NCBI RefSeq assembly: GCF_001975725.1
Contig: NZ_CP019434.1
Coordinates: forward strand, 1,695,486-1,759,485
Origin: Acidihalobacter ferrooxydans
Lineage (GTDB): Bacteria > Pseudomonadota > Gammaproteobacteria > DSM-5130 > Acidihalobacteraceae
DNA length: 64,000 nucleotides
Direction of reading: 5' to 3'
A program made the translations under genes and the position numbers. Position 1 is the first letter of the stretch. Every line of letters starts with the position of its first letter. The notes below the pieces were generated by a model. That model was not told the origin of the DNA and made no database searches. It saw nothing but the letters and a program-made list of their open reading frames with translations. This document shows, one piece after another, positions 57,690-64,000 of the stretch.

Positions 57690-58538
57690 TCATCCTTTAG
57701 ACAGCGCGGCCGCGTGGTAGGCGAGATGCTCGCCGATGAAGCTGGCGACGAAGTGATAGCTGTGGTCGTAGTCGTCGCGCATGCGCAACGTCAGCGGGAA
57801 TCCCCGCGCGTTGCAGGCTGTCTGGAGGTCCTGCGGGTAGAGCTGGTCAGGCAGGAATTCGTCGCCCGTACCCTGTTCGATCAACAGCGGGATCGGTTCC
57901 GCGCCGGCGGCGACCAGTTCGGTCGCGTCATAGGCTTTCCAGGCTTCGCGGTCGTCGCCCAGATAGGCGCCGAAACAGCCCTCGCCCCAGCCGCATACCG
58001 TCGGGTGGCAGATCGGCGCGAAGGCCGACACCGAGCGGTAGGCGCCGGGATGCTTCAGTGCGCAGATCAGTGCGCCGTGGCCGCCCATGGAGTGGCCGGA
58101 AATCGATTTCAGGCCGGGTATCAGGGGCAGTTCGGCCTCGACCAGCGCCGGCAACTCACGGGCGACATAGTCGTACATCTGATAGTGCTCGGACCACGGC
58201 GCTTGCGTGGCGTTGACGTAAAAGCCCGCGCCCTGGCCGAGGTCGTAGCGTTCCGGCTCGTCCGGCACGCCATCGCCGCGCGGGCTGGTGTCCGGGATGA
58301 CCAGCGCCAGTCCGAGTTCGGCGGCGTAGCGCTGGGCGCCGGCCTTGGTGCGGAAGTTGTCGTCCGTGCAGGTCAGGCCGGACAGCCAGTAGACGGCTGG
58401 CACCGGACCCTGTGCGGCTTGCGGCGGTAGGTAGACGGAAAAAGTCATGCGGCAGCGGCAGCCGGTGGAGTCGTGCTGGTAACGATCCAGCCAGCCGCCG
58501 CTTTCCTTGATGTGTTCGATACGTTCGAGTGTTGACAT
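57690..58538 (-). CDS. fghA: S-formylglutathione hydrolase
   Basis: This 282-residue alpha/beta hydrolase (esterase D family) cleaves S-formylglutathione to formate and glutathione. It shows WLSGLTCTDDNF, the nucleophile elbow SGHSMGGHGAL, the acid region GTGDEFLPDQLYP and the catalytic His in DDYDHSYHF. It is the last gene of the minus-strand run mtoX-gfa-adhC-fghA, 8 bases after adhC. Confidence 0.95.
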   Translation of the reverse strand: MSTLERIEHIKESGGWLDRYQHDSTGCRCRMTFSVYLPPQAAQGPVPAVYWLSGLTCTDDNFRTKAGAQRYAAELGLALVIPDTSPRGDGVPDEPERYDLGQGAGFYVNATQAPWSEHYQMYDYVARELPALVEAELPLIPGLKSISGHSMGGHGALICALKHPGAYRSVSAFAPICHPTVCGWGEGCFGAYLGDDREAWKAYDATELVAAGAEPIPLLIEQGTGDEFLPDQLYPQDLQTACNARGFPLTLRMRDDYDHSYHFVASFIGEHLAYHAAALSKG

Positions 58539-58546
58539 GAAGCCTC

Positions 58547-59656
58547 TCAGAAAATGATCACGGAACGAATGCTCTTGCCCTCGTGCATAAGGTCGAAGGC
58601 GCGGTTGATGTCTTCCAGCGGCATGGTGTGCGTGACCATCTCGTCGATCTTGATCTCGCCGTTCATGTAGCGGTCGACGTAACCGGGCAGCTGGCTGCGG
58701 CCCTTGACGCCGCCGAAGGCGGTGCCCTGCCAGCGGCGCCCGGTCACCAGCTGGAACGGGCGGGTGTGGATTTCCTGCCCGGCGCCGGCCACGCCGATGA
58801 TCGTGGAGACGCCCCAGCCCATGTGGCAGCACTCCAGTGCCTCGCGCATGATCTCGACGTTGCCGATGCACTCGAAGGAGTAGTCGACGCCGCCGTCGGT
58901 CATTTCCTTGATGGCTTCGGTGGTGCTGACACTCAGTTCCTTGGGGTTGACGCAGTCGGTGGCGCCGAGCGCGCGGGCCATCTCGAACTTGTCCGGATTG
59001 ATGTCCACGGCGATGATGCGCGAGGCCTTGGCCATGACCGCACCCTGGATGACCGATAGGCCGATGCCGCCGAGGCCGAACACAGCCACCGTCGAGCCGG
59101 GCTCGACCTTGGCCGTATTGAGCACGGCGCCGATGCCGGTGGTGATGCCGCAACCGAGCAGGCAGACCTTGTCCAGCGGCGCAGCCTTGTTGATCCTGGC
59201 CAGCGCGATCTCGGGTACCACGGTGTACTCGCTGAAGGTCGAGCAGCCCATGTAGTGGTAGATCTCCTGGCCGCCGACCTTGAAGCGGCGGGTGTGGTCG
59301 GGCATGTAGCCGCTCCACAGGGTGCCCGCGATGGTCTGACACAGGTTGGTCTTGGTGGAGCGGCAATACTCACAGTGCCCGCACTCGGGGATGTAGAGCG
59401 GGATGACGTGATCGCCCACGCTCAGGCTCGTCACGCCGGGGCCGACTTCGACCACTTCGCAGCCGCCCTCGTGGCCGAGGATGCAGGGGAACGCGCCTTC
59501 GGGGTCGTCGCCCGACAGGGTGAAGGCGTCGGTGTGGCACACGCCGCTGGCGTGGACCTTGAGCAGAACTTCTCCTTCCTTGGGGCCTTCGACCTCGACT
59601 TCCTCGATGACCAGGGGCTTACGCGGTTCCCAGGCGACAGCGGCTTTGGCTTTCAT
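58547..59656 (-). CDS. adhC: S-(hydroxymethyl)glutathione dehydrogenase (class III ADH)
   Basis: The 369-residue zinc enzyme oxidises S-hydroxymethylglutathione with NAD. Catalytic zinc residues lie in [13 protein letters not shown] and [12 protein letters not shown], the structural zinc cysteines in [16 protein letters not shown], and the Rossmann turn in [16 protein letters not shown]. The [14 protein letters not shown] stretch is typical of class III enzymes. It acts between Gfa and FghA. Confidence 0.96.
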
Positions 59657-59699
59657 GATGGATCGTCTCCTTCGTGTTGTCGTTGGTGTGTCGGGCGGT

Positions 59700-60281
59700 T
59701 CAGGCGGCCGACAATACACCTTTCTGTTTGGCAGTGTGGGTGGCGATCAGGTCCATCAGCGCCGGCGAGAGGCAATCGTAGGGTTCGAGGCCCAGCTCAT
59801 GCAATCGCGCGCGGATGGCGTCCATTTCCGACGGCGGGGTGCCGCCTTCAATGAGCGAGGAAACGAACGCGGCGAACTGCGGTTCGCACCAGCCGGCTTC
59901 GTCCGACAGTTCGGTGTGAATGAAGTCAAGCCCATAGAACGGGTGGGTCTTGTCTTCGATGCGACCGAACATGTGCGCTCCGCACGCGCGGCAGGCATGA
60001 CGCTGGATCGCGGCAGAGGCATCGACGATTTCGAGTTTTTCACCGTGCGCGACAACGCTGACCGAATCACGCGGGACGACGGCGACAAGCGAGAATTTCG
60101 CCCCTTCCGGCTTCCAGCATTGTGTGCAACCGCAGGCGTGGTTGAAGGCGCTCTGCGCGGCGACCTTGACCACCACCGGGTCGTGGGCGCATTTGCAATG
60201 CAGAGTGCCACCCTGGAAGTTCTCGGCGGCGGGCTTGATGCCATGATCGATGGCGGGATGTAACGATACGAACTGGTTCAT
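59700..60281 (-). CDS. gfa: S-(hydroxymethyl)glutathione synthase Gfa
   Basis: The 193-residue zinc protein of the GFA family speeds up the reaction of formaldehyde with glutathione. Zinc ligands are in [22 protein letters not shown] and [14 protein letters not shown]. It is 43 bases upstream of adhC, and its position after the methanethiol oxidase gene places formaldehyde capture directly after formaldehyde production. Confidence 0.94.
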
Positions 60282-62077: not shown

Positions 62078-62312
62078 TAACGAAAGCATACTGCGTGCCA
62101 TTTATGCGTCCATAAGAAAATACGTTGCATTCCGCCGATGACTATCTAAGCTCAAGGTTTGGGCGCGGCGCGCGATGGGCGCGTATCTAGCCGTGCTTGA
62201 CTGCACGGGCGGTAATGGAACTCGGCGATGTACGCGAATCAGACTCAGTCGATTGAAGCGCGCCACGATAGCCGGATGACTGCATCCACGATGGTGTGCC
62301 TGATCTGGGAAT

Positions 62313-62331
62313 ACGTGACGCAGTGTCACGT
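62313..62331. promoter_or_regulatory. perfect palindrome ACGTGAC-N5-GTCACGT
   Basis: A 7-base perfect inverted repeat with a 5-base spacer lies 84 bases before the regulator start and about 520 bases from mtoX. It has no T run, so it is unlikely to be a terminator. Its symmetry and position in the shared upstream region suit an upstream activating site for the sigma-54 activator. The rest of this 622-base gap (61793-62414) shows no other gene. Confidence 0.45.
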
Positions 62332-62414
62332 TCTCGGTACAGCTGTAAGCGTGTTCGCAACGGCGCCATCCGCGAGCGGTGGTTGGCCGTTGCGTGGCGG
62401 CAGGGTGGTGGCGC

Positions 62415-64000
62415 GTGTCTGATCGTGAGGTTGCCCGCCATCTAGAACGTATCCAGGCGATCATTGCCGACGGCGCCTTGGCGCACGACGTCGAATCCTA
62501 TATTTCGGATTCCTGGCGACGCTGCGTGGCGGAACATCGATTAAATCCCAGTGATTGCCGCGAACCCGAGGTGCTCGAATCTGCACTGTTGCGCGAGCGC
62601 CGCCAGCGGCACGAACGTCTGCTATCGCTGGCGTCTGATGAGATGGGCAGTTTGTACCAGCAGGTGGCTGGTTCAGGGCACGTCGTTATCCTGACGGACG
62701 CCGACGGCTGCGTGCTCGACTATGTGGGCGACATGGCGTTGGAACGGCAAACCGGCAGCGCTGGTCTGCTCCCCGGCGCGTTGTGGAACGAGCGCGTCCA
62801 GGGCACCAACGGTATGGGCACCTGCCTGATGACCGGCAAGCCGGTGACCGTGCACCACGACGAGCATTTTCTGGTCAGGAACACAGTGCTGACCTGTTCG
62901 GCTGCGCCCATCTACGATCCCGAGGGCGATCTGATGGCGGTGCTGGACGTGTCGAGCACCGCCAGCGTGGCCCAGCAGCATGCGCTGAGTCTGGTGGGCA
63001 TGTCTGCCCAACTCATCGAAAACAGGGTGTTCCACTGCGCGTACCGTGATCAGTACCTCCTGCATTTCCACAGTCGACCGGAGTTCCTCAACACGCTGGG
63101 GGAGGGTGTACTGTCCTTCGATCCAGCGGGCAGGGTGCTCGGCGCCACTCGCAGCGCGCTGTTCCAACTAGGCGTGGATGCACGCGTGACGCTGGTCGGC
63201 CAGGACATCGCCGAGGTGTTCGACATGCGGCTGGCCGACCTGATAGACGAGGCTGCCAGGCTCCATCACGGTCAGCCGATTCCCCTGCGCGGTGTGGTGG
63301 ACGGCAGGCGGTTCTTTGCCTCACTGAAGTGTCCCGCGCGCAGCGGTTCACACACCGGGCATAACGTGCGCGCAGCGAAGATCCGCGACGCTGGCGCATC
63401 GGAGCTCGACCTGGAGCAGCTCAATTTCGGCGACCCGCGCATGGCCCAGGCCATTCGGCAGGCAAAGAAGCTCATCGACCGCGACGTGTCGCTGCTACTG
63501 TCGGGACCAACCGGTGTCGGCAAGGGCCTGTTTGCCAAGGCGCTGCATGGCTATAGCGACCGCGCCGACAAGCCGTTCGTTACAGTCAACTGCGCAGCTA
63601 TCCCCGAAACGCTGATAGAAAGCGAGTTGTTTGGCTACAAGGCCGGCGCGTTCACCGGAGCCAACCGCCAGGGCAGTCGCGGCAAGATCGTGCTGGCGAA
63701 CGGCGGCACGCTGTTTCTGGACGAGATCGGCGACATGCCGCTGCCGTTGCAGGCGCGGCTGCTGCGCGTGCTGGAAGAACGAGAGGTGGTGCCGCTGGGA
63801 GCGGACACCGCGATCAGGGTCGACCTCAACATCATCAGCGCGACGCACCGCGATCTAAAGACGCTGGTGCAATGCGGCGAGTTCCGCGAGGATCTGTACT
63901 ACCGTTTGCGTGGCCAGGCGCTGATCCTGCCGCCCCTGCGCCAGCGCACAGACAAACGCCAGCTCATCGAATACATCCTCAAGCTCGAACAGGCCGAGGA
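62415..64000 (+). CDS. sigma-54-dependent transcriptional activator, AcoR-like (C-terminus outside window)
   Basis: Translation from GTG 62415 is open to the right edge (528 codons). The N-terminal part is AcoR-like: a helical start ([20 protein letters not shown]), a GAF domain with [17 protein letters not shown] and [20 protein letters not shown], then a PAS-like segment. A sigma-54 AAA domain follows, with Walker A GPTGVGKG at 364-371, GAFTGA at 411-416 and the DEIG Walker B. The C-terminal HTH is not visible. AGGG lies nine bases upstream of the GTG. Such regulators sense small molecules through GAF and activate nearby operons; mtoX-gfa-adhC-fghA, transcribed divergently, is the likely target. 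Confidence 0.9.

What the first reader, a model, noticed from the sequence alone, without database searches (positions are those of the whole stretch)
57690..64000. Methanethiol oxidase operon coupled to glutathione formaldehyde oxidation, with its own sigma-54 activator
Seen: a minus-strand run of an SBP56/MtoX-type oxidase, Gfa, class III ADH and S-formylglutathione hydrolase, with a divergent AcoR-like GAF/AAA activator. Known: MtoX produces formaldehyde, H2S and H2O2 from methanethiol, and the other three enzymes turn formaldehyde to formate. Inference: this is a self-contained inducible route for methylated sulfur. The gene order and the regulator type may not be described. No catalase, MauG or SCO1-like helper is in view.
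Basis: partly seen in the sequence, partly recalled or inferred. Interest (0 to 1): 0.7.

Follow-up and report, generated by a model that had tools for sequence, protein, structure and literature searches.

The report
Methanethiol-to-CO2 gene module with unnamed partner
A bacterium carries, side by side, genes that probably turn the foul-smelling gas methanethiol into carbon dioxide, and in related genomes the key enzyme sits next to an undescribed membrane protein that may be its missing helper.

Summary
On the minus strand lie an SBP56 oxidase, Gfa, class III ADH and S-formylglutathione hydrolase, with a divergent GAF/AAA+/Fis activator. A near-consensus sigma-54 site, the only one in the window, and one perfect palindrome lie between them.

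The interpretation needs four changes. (1) The oxidase is not MtoX: 110 bits against a cut-off of 650, no evident signal peptide. It has the three cysteine motifs of 'cluster 1' methanethiol oxidases, reported to give sulfane sulfur and no H2O2. (2) The module runs past the window: activator, membrane protein, formate dehydrogenase FdsGBA, FdhD, so the route can reach CO2. (3) It is a mosaic: three family relatives carry only the ADH-FGH pair, at 87-89% DNA identity. (4) The missing helper may be the membrane protein. It fits no Pfam or NCBIfam family, yet lies beside SBP56 in 80 of 80 nearest relatives (13 phyla; two copies damaged) and in 27 of the 28 phylum-sample genomes with both. This genome is the exception: its copy lies across the activator, is unusually diverged and lost two of five conserved histidines.

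Methanethiol turnover, induction and the helper's function remain inferred.

The parts
60371..61792 (-). SBP56 thiol (methanethiol) oxidase, apparently cytosolic; ATG at 61792, an in-frame TTG at 61804
   Evidence: PF05694 597 bits; motifs [19 protein letters not shown]; MtoX model NF052453 only 110 of 650 bits; no hydrophobic N-terminus
59700..60281 (-). Gfa, S-(hydroxymethyl)glutathione synthase
   Evidence: TIGR02820 324.6 bits, cut-off 234.55
58547..59656 (-). class III alcohol dehydrogenase (S-(hydroxymethyl)glutathione dehydrogenase); ORF open from 59719
   Evidence: TIGR02818 663.6 bits, cut-off 543.95; DNA 87-89% identical in three relatives of the same family
57690..58538 (-). S-formylglutathione hydrolase
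   Evidence: TIGR02821 405.5 bits, cut-off 281.7; same pair in the three relatives
59672..59673 (.). junction: DNA shared with the relatives' ADH-FGH pair ends here, 16 bases upstream of the ADH ATG
   Evidence: blastn L002 5188-7158, equal to window 57702-59672, against G001-G003
62379..64000 (+). GAF / sigma-54 AAA+ / Fis-HTH activator, cut by the window end (659 aa in all)
   Evidence: PF01590, PF00158, PF02954; GPTGVGK and GAFTGA motifs; full reading frame in L002 9865-11844
62085..62100 (-). sigma-54-like promoter TGGCACGCAGTATGCT, pointing into the SBP56 run
   Evidence: the only match with at most 1 mismatch in 64 kb, 1.39 expected by chance; 10 of 11 positions, best of 80 upstream regions, 0.27% in single-base shuffles
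62313..62331 (.). perfect palindrome ACGTGAC-N5-GTCACGT between activator and promoter; candidate activator binding site
   Evidence: the only perfect palindrome with 7-base arms (spacer up to 9) in 61805-62420 and the only GTGAC-N4-6-GTCAC site in the window and in L002
61977..62077 (.). copy of a dispersed repeat, in the predicted leader of the SBP56 run
   Evidence: 81% to 57444-57544; 40 matches of at least 72 bases in the genome, the query included

Best explanation
This is a sigma-54 controlled module that takes a methyl thiol, most likely methanethiol, to CO2 in the cytosol. SBP56 (inferred: copper-dependent) oxidises CH3SH to formaldehyde and releases the sulfur, probably as sulfane sulfur. 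Gfa joins formaldehyde to glutathione, class III ADH makes S-formylglutathione and NADH, FGH frees formate, and the formate dehydrogenase FdsGBA (with FdhD, its sulfur-inserting helper) makes CO2 and more NADH. The GAF domain of the divergent activator senses the substrate or a product, binds the palindrome at 62313 and opens the sigma-54 promoter at 62085. The membrane protein between activator and FdsG belongs to a family that is the standing partner of this SBP56 branch; its most likely job is to supply or hold the metal of the oxidase, in place of the SCO1/MauG proteins that serve periplasmic MtoX. Shown here: gene content, family membership, linkage, co-occurrence, the sites as sequence. 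Inferred: substrate, copper, location in the cytosol, induction, the role of the membrane protein, co-transcription. The enzyme steps of Gfa, ADH, FGH, Fds and FdhD follow from established knowledge of these families.
For: Families above curated cut-offs for Gfa, ADH, FGH, FdsA and FdhD. Cysteine motifs of tested cluster 1 methanethiol oxidases, and HH and HxxH motifs of the kind that human SELENBP1 needs for copper-dependent activity (matched by motif, not by alignment to the human protein; in the window protein and 80 of 80 relatives). SBP56 near formaldehyde genes elsewhere: ADH divergent from it in G261, ADH and FGH 3-8 kb upstream in two Microbulbifer loci. Both SBP56 and its usual partner are in this one block. 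Sigma-54-like site, palindrome, rpoN. Partner adjacent in 80 of 80 relatives, in 27 of the 28 phylum-sample genomes that have both, absent from the 36 class-sample genomes with only low-scoring (mostly MtoX-type) SBP56 hits. G059 has SBP56 plus partner directly beside MtoX with SCO1/MauG genes.
Against: No activity, expression or metal data. Formaldehyde genes are rarely near SBP56: full-length class III ADH with FGH in 2 of 80 relatives, Gfa in none. The sigma-54 site and activator are not shared by relatives (one partial activator-like hit of 38% in 80), so they cannot be checked by conservation, and one such site is expected in the window by chance. FdsG and FdsB score below the curated cut-offs of their best models. 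All three cysteine motifs are in only 49 of 80 relatives and the near relative in G023 has GGDSS. Some high-scoring SBP56 genomes lack the partner: 2 of 30 (phylum) and 2 of 13 (class). In this genome the partner has moved, diverged and lost H18 and H168, so its role here may have changed. Its fold gave no confident match.
Confidence: 0.55

Rival explanations
1. The module is a formaldehyde (or methanol/C1) detoxification block and SBP56 is a passenger or works on another thiol; the activator senses formaldehyde or a C1 alcohol.
For: Gfa, ADH, FGH and Fds serve formaldehyde and formate whatever their source; the ADH-FGH pair is found without SBP56 in three relatives; SELENBP1 also oxidises other thiols.
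Against: SBP56 is the first gene of the run, behind the sigma-54-like site, and a member of its usual partner family is in the same block. Formaldehyde genes turn up near SBP56 in other lineages too.
Confidence: 0.25
2. The membrane protein is a transporter for the substrate or the sulfur product (methanethiol, sulfane sulfur, sulfite) and has nothing to do with the cofactor.
For: Seven or eight helices of 11 or more residues in the two predicted structures; the weak structural matches are mostly transporters; one of 41 members weakly matches an efflux protein model (E 5e-4).
Against: Three divergent homologues without SBP56 nearby all pair with DUF899 genes, which are not known to me as sulfur genes (recall). 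Five conserved histidines suggest a metal or haem.
Confidence: 0.3
3. The membrane protein is an electron conduit (haem or quinone) that lets SBP56 pass electrons to the respiratory chain instead of O2.
For: Conserved histidines; a cytochrome b561 gene follows SBP56 and the partner in G023; CcdA and an Rnf subunit are among the weak structural matches, Z 6.4 and 7.4.
Against: Those Z values are in the range the tool calls common for helical models; only one partly conserved cysteine column, whereas CcdA works with a cysteine pair (recall); the b561 gene was seen in one genome; no shared third gene in more than 3 of 76 loci.
Confidence: 0.15
4. The neighbourhood is an accident: unrelated genes brought together by rearrangement, without shared control.
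For: The three family relatives have ADH-FGH alone in another context, and the same-genus genome has no match; copies of a repeat lie on both sides of the minus-strand run.
Against: The genes make up consecutive steps of one pathway, same strand, with gaps of 8-89 bases; SBP56 and its usual partner are both present, on opposite arms.
Confidence: 0.1

Closest known systems
Periplasmic methanethiol oxidase MtoX with SCO1/SenC and MauG (Hyphomicrobium sp. VS, Ruegeria pomeroyi, Methylophaga thiooxydans; PMC5739008 and PMC6548844, passages read)
   Same: Same PF05694 superfamily and same proposed first reaction.
   Different: Here no evident signal peptide, no SCO1/MauG among the neighbours scanned, outside the MtoX equivalog model; a different membrane protein is the partner. 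In Methylophaga formaldehyde goes through H4F/H4MPT; here the genes are those of the glutathione route. The regulator in R. pomeroyi is IclR-type; here a sigma-54 activator.
Cluster 1 methanethiol oxidases RdMTO and RlMTO (PMC10936201, sections 9, 10 and 12 read)
   Same: Three cysteine motifs GWNACS, HTV/IHC, GGDCS/T, all present in the window protein.
   Different: Their own sequences were not compared here; no operon is discussed in the sections read.
Human SELENBP1, copper-dependent thiol oxidase (PMC10362175, passages read)
   Same: HH and HxxH motifs; methanethiol as substrate of the human enzyme.
   Different: Human sequence not compared. Four bacterial copies that I call SELENBP1-like from recall of the human N-terminus (L084-L087) form a separate branch; the genomes of two of them (G055, G268) have no partner hit, the third (G158) only a weak one on another contig, and in G297 the partner lies beside another SBP56 copy.
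Glutathione-dependent formaldehyde oxidation (gfa, adhC/frmA, fghA/frmB; names recalled) with NAD formate dehydrogenase
   Same: All three enzymes plus Fds and FdhD.
   Different: Joined to an SBP56 oxidase and a sigma-54 activator; in the three family relatives ADH-FGH stand alone.

Membership tests
MtoX methanethiol oxidase (NF052453) | score above the curated cut-off of 650 bits | tested here: not met
   110.1 bits; controls L137 MtoX 778.5 and L103 729.2
MtoX methanethiol oxidase (NF052453) | export signal peptide | tested here: not met
   highest 12-residue hydropathy in the first 45 residues 0.50; 14 MtoX proteins mean 2.25, least 1.62, there over 70 residues because starts were not set; the 80 relatives mean 0.76, highest 1.62. 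A hydropathy estimate, not SignalP
MtoX methanethiol oxidase (NF052453) | TCxSPYM motif | tested here: not met
   absent from the window protein; present in 14 of the 29 class loci examined
MtoX methanethiol oxidase (NF052453) | SCO1/SenC and MauG genes next door | tested here: not met
   none among the 13 proteins scanned at the operon and past the window end; genome not searched for them
SBP56 / SELENBP1 superfamily (PF05694) | Pfam gathering score; copper-site motifs HH and HxxH | tested here: met
   597 bits against 34; HHFGW at 75, HTVH at 143
Cluster 1 methanethiol oxidase (PMC10936201) | GWNACS, HTV/IHC and GGDCS/T cysteine motifs | tested here: met
   all three; all three in 49 of 80 relatives only
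Cluster 1 methanethiol oxidase (PMC10936201) | methanethiol turnover to formaldehyde and sulfane sulfur | not testable with these tools
   needs an assay
Cluster 1 methanethiol oxidase (PMC10936201) | grouping in one tree with RdMTO and RlMTO | not tested
   their sequences were not fetched
Glutathione-dependent formaldehyde oxidation | Gfa, class III ADH and FGH above equivalog cut-offs | tested here: met
   TIGR02820, TIGR02818, TIGR02821
NAD-linked formate dehydrogenase FdsGBA | catalytic subunit and FdhD above cut-off | tested here: met
   TIGR01591 939.5 against 666.25; FdhD TIGR00129 176.6 against 140.9
NAD-linked formate dehydrogenase FdsGBA | gamma and beta subunits above cut-off | tested here: inconclusive
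   FdsG best model 152.6 against 198; FdsB best model is NuoF, 423.4 against 558.65
Sigma-54 dependent activator | AAA+ sigma-54 domain with GAFTGA loop, Fis HTH, sigma-54 in the genome | tested here: met
DhaR type activator | equivalog score for DhaR | tested here: not met
   314.9 against 551; no AcoR model is among the 25 of 27 families shown, so 'AcoR-like' describes the domain order only

The most novel reading that the evidence does not exclude
An undescribed family of small membrane proteins (motif HGxNPxMGW, five conserved histidines) is the dedicated partner of a cytosolic branch of SBP56 thiol oxidases across at least 13 bacterial phyla and does for them what SCO1 and MauG do for periplasmic MtoX: supply metal or finish the cofactor. 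In this genome the pair was taken apart and rebuilt into a sigma-54 controlled methanethiol-to-CO2 module.
Probability: 0.35. Interest if true: 0.8.

Novelty: new variant of a known kind. Interest (0 to 1): 0.6.

Why it matters
How a cytosolic SBP56 oxidase gets its metal is open as far as I could read: its periplasmic cousin has dedicated helpers, and none is named for the cytosolic enzyme in the passages read. A gene that lies beside the enzyme in 80 of 80 nearest relatives gives a direct test in ordinary laboratory bacteria. The module in the window adds a complete, apparently self-regulated path from a volatile methylated sulfur compound to CO2, in a lineage whose four held relatives of the same family have no SBP56 gene.

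Tried and rejected
From the look of the sequence I had expected the LysE/DsbD/NicO transporter superfamily (recall); this stays unproved.

A family name for the partner: 41 members gave no consistent Pfam or NCBIfam family. Of 56 plasmid records with a match, 30 were listed; where a row has an annotation under the match it reads 'hypothetical protein', one row adding the SBP56 label of the neighbour.

A conserved third gene next to SBP56 and the partner: none in more than 3 of 76 loci directly downstream, and the wider clustering gave few shared families, several of which look like frame shadows of high-GC genes. Sigma-54 control as a general feature of this branch: not supported, only the window reaches 10 of 11 positions among 80 upstream regions; four reach 9, among them the close relative in G059. 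Formate dehydrogenase near SBP56 in G125: the hits are partial and weak, more like complex I in my judgement. Rfam for the flanking repeat: none. The organism: 3,448,835 bases, one contig, a family of five held genomes; the class and phylum are not named by the tools, Gammaproteobacteria and Pseudomonadota are my inference, and my guess of Acidihalobacter is recall and unverified (one search did not settle it).

Literature for a linked membrane gene or an SBP56-glutathione-formate operon: the listings (open-access library) showed none, but searches list only 15 of 46, 15 of 246 and 12 of 778 papers; subscription papers and supplements were not searched.

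
Full report
WHAT IS THERE. The minus strand from 61804 to 57690 holds four genes in one direction: SBP56, Gfa, class III ADH and S-formylglutathione hydrolase. The last three exceed the curated equivalog cut-offs of their families, and SBP56 has 597 bits against the Pfam family. The divergent gene from 62379 is a GAF, AAA+ and Fis-type activator with the GAFTGA loop; it is cut by the window end and complete at 659 aa in the genome.

BEYOND THE WINDOW. I read 7.5 kb past the end (locus L002; window coordinate = L002 coordinate + 52514). 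After the activator come, on the same strand, a 217-aa membrane protein (L002 12228-12881), FdsG (13053-13553), FdsB (13550-15091), FdsA (15104-17959; TIGR01591 939.5 bits, cut-off 666.25) and FdhD (17956-18849; TIGR00129 176.6, cut-off 140.9). FdsG and FdsB resemble their families but stay below the curated cut-offs. So the block holds candidate enzymes for every step from a methyl thiol to CO2.

THE OXIDASE IS NOT MtoX. The NCBIfam model for MtoX gives 110.1 bits against a cut-off of 650; two MtoX proteins found in the survey give 778.5 and 729.2. The window protein lacks the TCxSPYM motif and a hydrophobic N-terminus (0.50 in the first 45 residues; 14 MtoX proteins at least 1.62 in their first 70; the 80 relatives mean 0.76, highest 1.62). 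In a quick tree of 109 SBP56 sequences it lies apart from MtoX and from four copies that I call SELENBP1-like (recall of the human N-terminus; the human protein is not in the tree), next to G059 and G023 at 75-77% identity. It carries all three cysteine motifs (GWNACS, HTVHC, GGDCS) that mark cluster 1 methanethiol oxidases in PMC10936201 (sections 9, 10, 12 read), where two members consumed methanethiol, gave more sulfane sulfur than H2S and no H2O2. By motif it also carries the HH and HxxH pairs whose change strongly reduced the copper-dependent activity of human SELENBP1 (PMC10362175, passages); these are in 80 of 80 relatives. Against this: the products are disputed, since PMC10362175 reports H2S and H2O2 for SELENBP1 and PMC6548844 reports catalase induction with MtoX (passages); the full set of three cysteine motifs is in only 49 of 80 relatives; the near relative in G023 has GGDSS; and RdMTO and RlMTO themselves were not compared.

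CONTROL SITES. The pattern TGGCAC-N5-TTGCT with at most one mismatch occurs once in the 64 kb, at 62085-62100 on the minus strand, facing SBP56; 1.39 are expected by chance, so the count is no evidence, only the position. Scored with the GG and GC dinucleotides required, it has 10 of 11 positions, the best of 80 upstream regions examined (76 relatives with at least 300 bases upstream, L137-L139 and the window); 0.27% of regions shuffled base by base reach that. The only perfect palindrome with 7-base arms between the genes, ACGTGAC-N5-GTCACGT, lies at 62313-62331. The genome has rpoN (503.7 bits). I found no relative that shares the activator next to SBP56, so conservation cannot test these sites.

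A STANDING PARTNER. In 78 of these 80, tblastn with the membrane protein finds a homologue at SBP56 on the same strand: 77 downstream, 18-290 bases away, one (L064) directly upstream. In the other two (L057, L081) a profile search of the whole genome finds it directly downstream, split over two frames in L057, whose SBP56 frame also has a stop, and with one TGA in L081 (that the contigs are the same is inferred from matching coordinates). So it is 80 of 80, over 13 phyla as labelled in the tree (L055 carries no phylum label). Full-length ADH with FGH is near in 2 of 80, Gfa in 0 of 80, a partial activator-like hit in 1 of 80 (contig ends and 10-kb flanks limit what can be seen).

SAMPLED GENOMES. 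To avoid choosing by SBP56, I searched the same genome samples with both profiles. Class sample, 369 genomes: SBP56 matches fall into a high-scoring group (13 genomes) and a low-scoring, mostly MtoX-type group. The partner is in 12 genomes, 11 of them in the high group. Of these 11, seven have it 15-75 bases from SBP56 (G297, G064, G059, G261, G023, G125, G104), two (G212, G089) are split at contig ends, one (G158) is a weak hit of 29.6 bits on another contig, and one is the window genome. The twelfth, G177, has an SBP56 fragment of 21 bits. Of 36 genomes with only low-group hits none has the partner. Fisher 2.5e-18. Phylum sample, 398 genomes: high-group SBP56 in 30, partner in 31, both in 28, Fisher 2.5e-37. 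In 27 of the 28 the partner lies 18-182 bases downstream on the same strand; the window's genome is the exception. The p-values ignore relatedness, and the two samples share genomes. Exceptions: G583 and G739 (phylum), G055 and G268 (class) have the oxidase without the partner; G583, G055 and G268 have SBP56 scores of 688-693 bits, near the top of the lists, and G055 and G268 fall in the SELENBP1-like branch. In G675, G619 and G541, which have two copies each, the partner is beside one copy only.

TWO KINDS OF OXIDASE SIDE BY SIDE. In G059, SBP56 and the partner lie next to a SCO1 gene on the other strand, then an MtoX (778.5 bits), a SCO1-MauG fusion and a MauG gene on the same strand. Each oxidase there has its own candidate helper next to it. 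This is the strongest hint that the membrane protein is the counterpart of SCO1/MauG; it is one locus.

WHAT THE PARTNER LOOKS LIKE. No Pfam or NCBIfam family fits its 41 aligned members consistently. Invariant or nearly so are the GxxHGxNPxMGW region, a GH pair, WSF, HGAGLM and WxNxD, with five histidines kept in at least 78 of 80 aligned copies. Three divergent homologues without an SBP56 partner nearby (G528, G640, G735; 109-143 bits) all follow a DUF899 gene on the same strand, 22-40 bases apart. Predicted structures are all-helical without a confident relative. Metal handling is my preferred reading because of the histidines and the SCO1/MauG parallel; transport and electron transfer are not excluded.

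THE WINDOW GENOME IS ODD. Its partner gene lies across the activator, heads the formate dehydrogenase genes, and has only 33-36% identity to the two copies whose SBP56 is 75-77% identical to the window's; in 243 other pairs of that SBP56 band the mean is 57% and the least 48.6%. Of 80 aligned copies it alone has lost H18 (Q) and H168 (M). The reading frame is intact, so it may have a changed job, perhaps tied to formate dehydrogenase.

MOSAIC ORIGIN. Three relatives of the same family (G001-G003) carry DNA 87-89% identical to window 57702-59672, that is the ADH-FGH pair, and tblastn finds nothing else of the block in the 20 kb fetched from each; in G001, the one whose open frames I listed, a GGDEF/EAL gene comes next. 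The same-genus genome G004 has no match to this DNA. None of the four has SBP56. The shared DNA stops 16 bases before the ADH start, so SBP56-Gfa and ADH-FGH were joined there. Which part moved cannot be told, since neither flank is shared.

LINK TO FORMALDEHYDE IN OTHERS. G261 has a class III ADH (600 bits) divergent from SBP56, and Microbulbifer loci L044 and L047 have ADH and FGH 3-8 kb upstream, in L047 with an unrelated gene between. This supports the pathway reading in two further lineages, but it is a small minority of loci.

WHAT IS IN PRINT. MtoX with SCO1/MauG (PMC5739008, passages), Methylophaga clusters in which formaldehyde goes through H4F/H4MPT (PMC6548844, abstract and passages), verrucomicrobial methanotrophs with MTO, FolD/FtfL and FDH proposed as a chain (PMC8498564, PMC7907005, passages), MtoX and a putative DMS monooxygenase in a thiosulfate-responsive gene set (PMC12423496, passages). 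None of the passages read describes the partner gene or this gene order, and the listings, some of them capped, showed no such paper.

Noticed in passing
window 57430-57545, 61982-62077, 35502-35576, partial 41988-42022: A dispersed repeat of about 115 bases: 40 matches of at least 72 bases (the query copy and 39 others at 76-85%) and one 16-base match in the own genome (40 of 95 candidate places were scored), none in the fetched 20-kb stretches of G001-G003, G023 and G059, no Rfam family, weak consensus fold (1 of 23 pairs compensatory).
   Followed up: partly
window 45612-53240, minus strand: A cluster like hydrogenase-4 / complex I: NADHdh, two Proton_antipo_M proteins, a fused 30/49-kDa type large subunit without any CxxC motif, and a cysteine-rich 286-aa ORF not scanned against Pfam.
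   Followed up: no
window 53306-54853 and 54850-56547, minus strand: Two neighbouring, different proteins whose only clear Pfam match is MutS domain V.
   Followed up: no
L137 4293-12342 (G059): SBP56 with partner directly beside periplasmic MtoX with SCO1, SCO1-MauG and MauG genes.
   Followed up: partly
L138 8206-8886 (G023): A cytochrome b561 gene (PF01292) follows SBP56 and the partner on the same strand.
   Followed up: no
L154 9477-10864, L155 9368-10820, L156 9517-10948: Divergent homologues of the partner protein pair with DUF899 genes in 3 of 3 cases examined.
   Followed up: partly
plasmids collection, hits H1-H30 and H31-H70: The SBP56 and partner genes lie close together on plasmids of Cupriavidus, Rhizobium, Phaeobacter, Azospirillum and others, so the pair can travel.
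   Followed up: no
L002 11841-12230, plus strand: A weak TGGCAT-N5-GTGCC site with GG and GC at sigma-54 spacing lies roughly 80-100 bases before the partner gene; three mismatches, seen by eye in the region printed, possibly chance.
   Followed up: no
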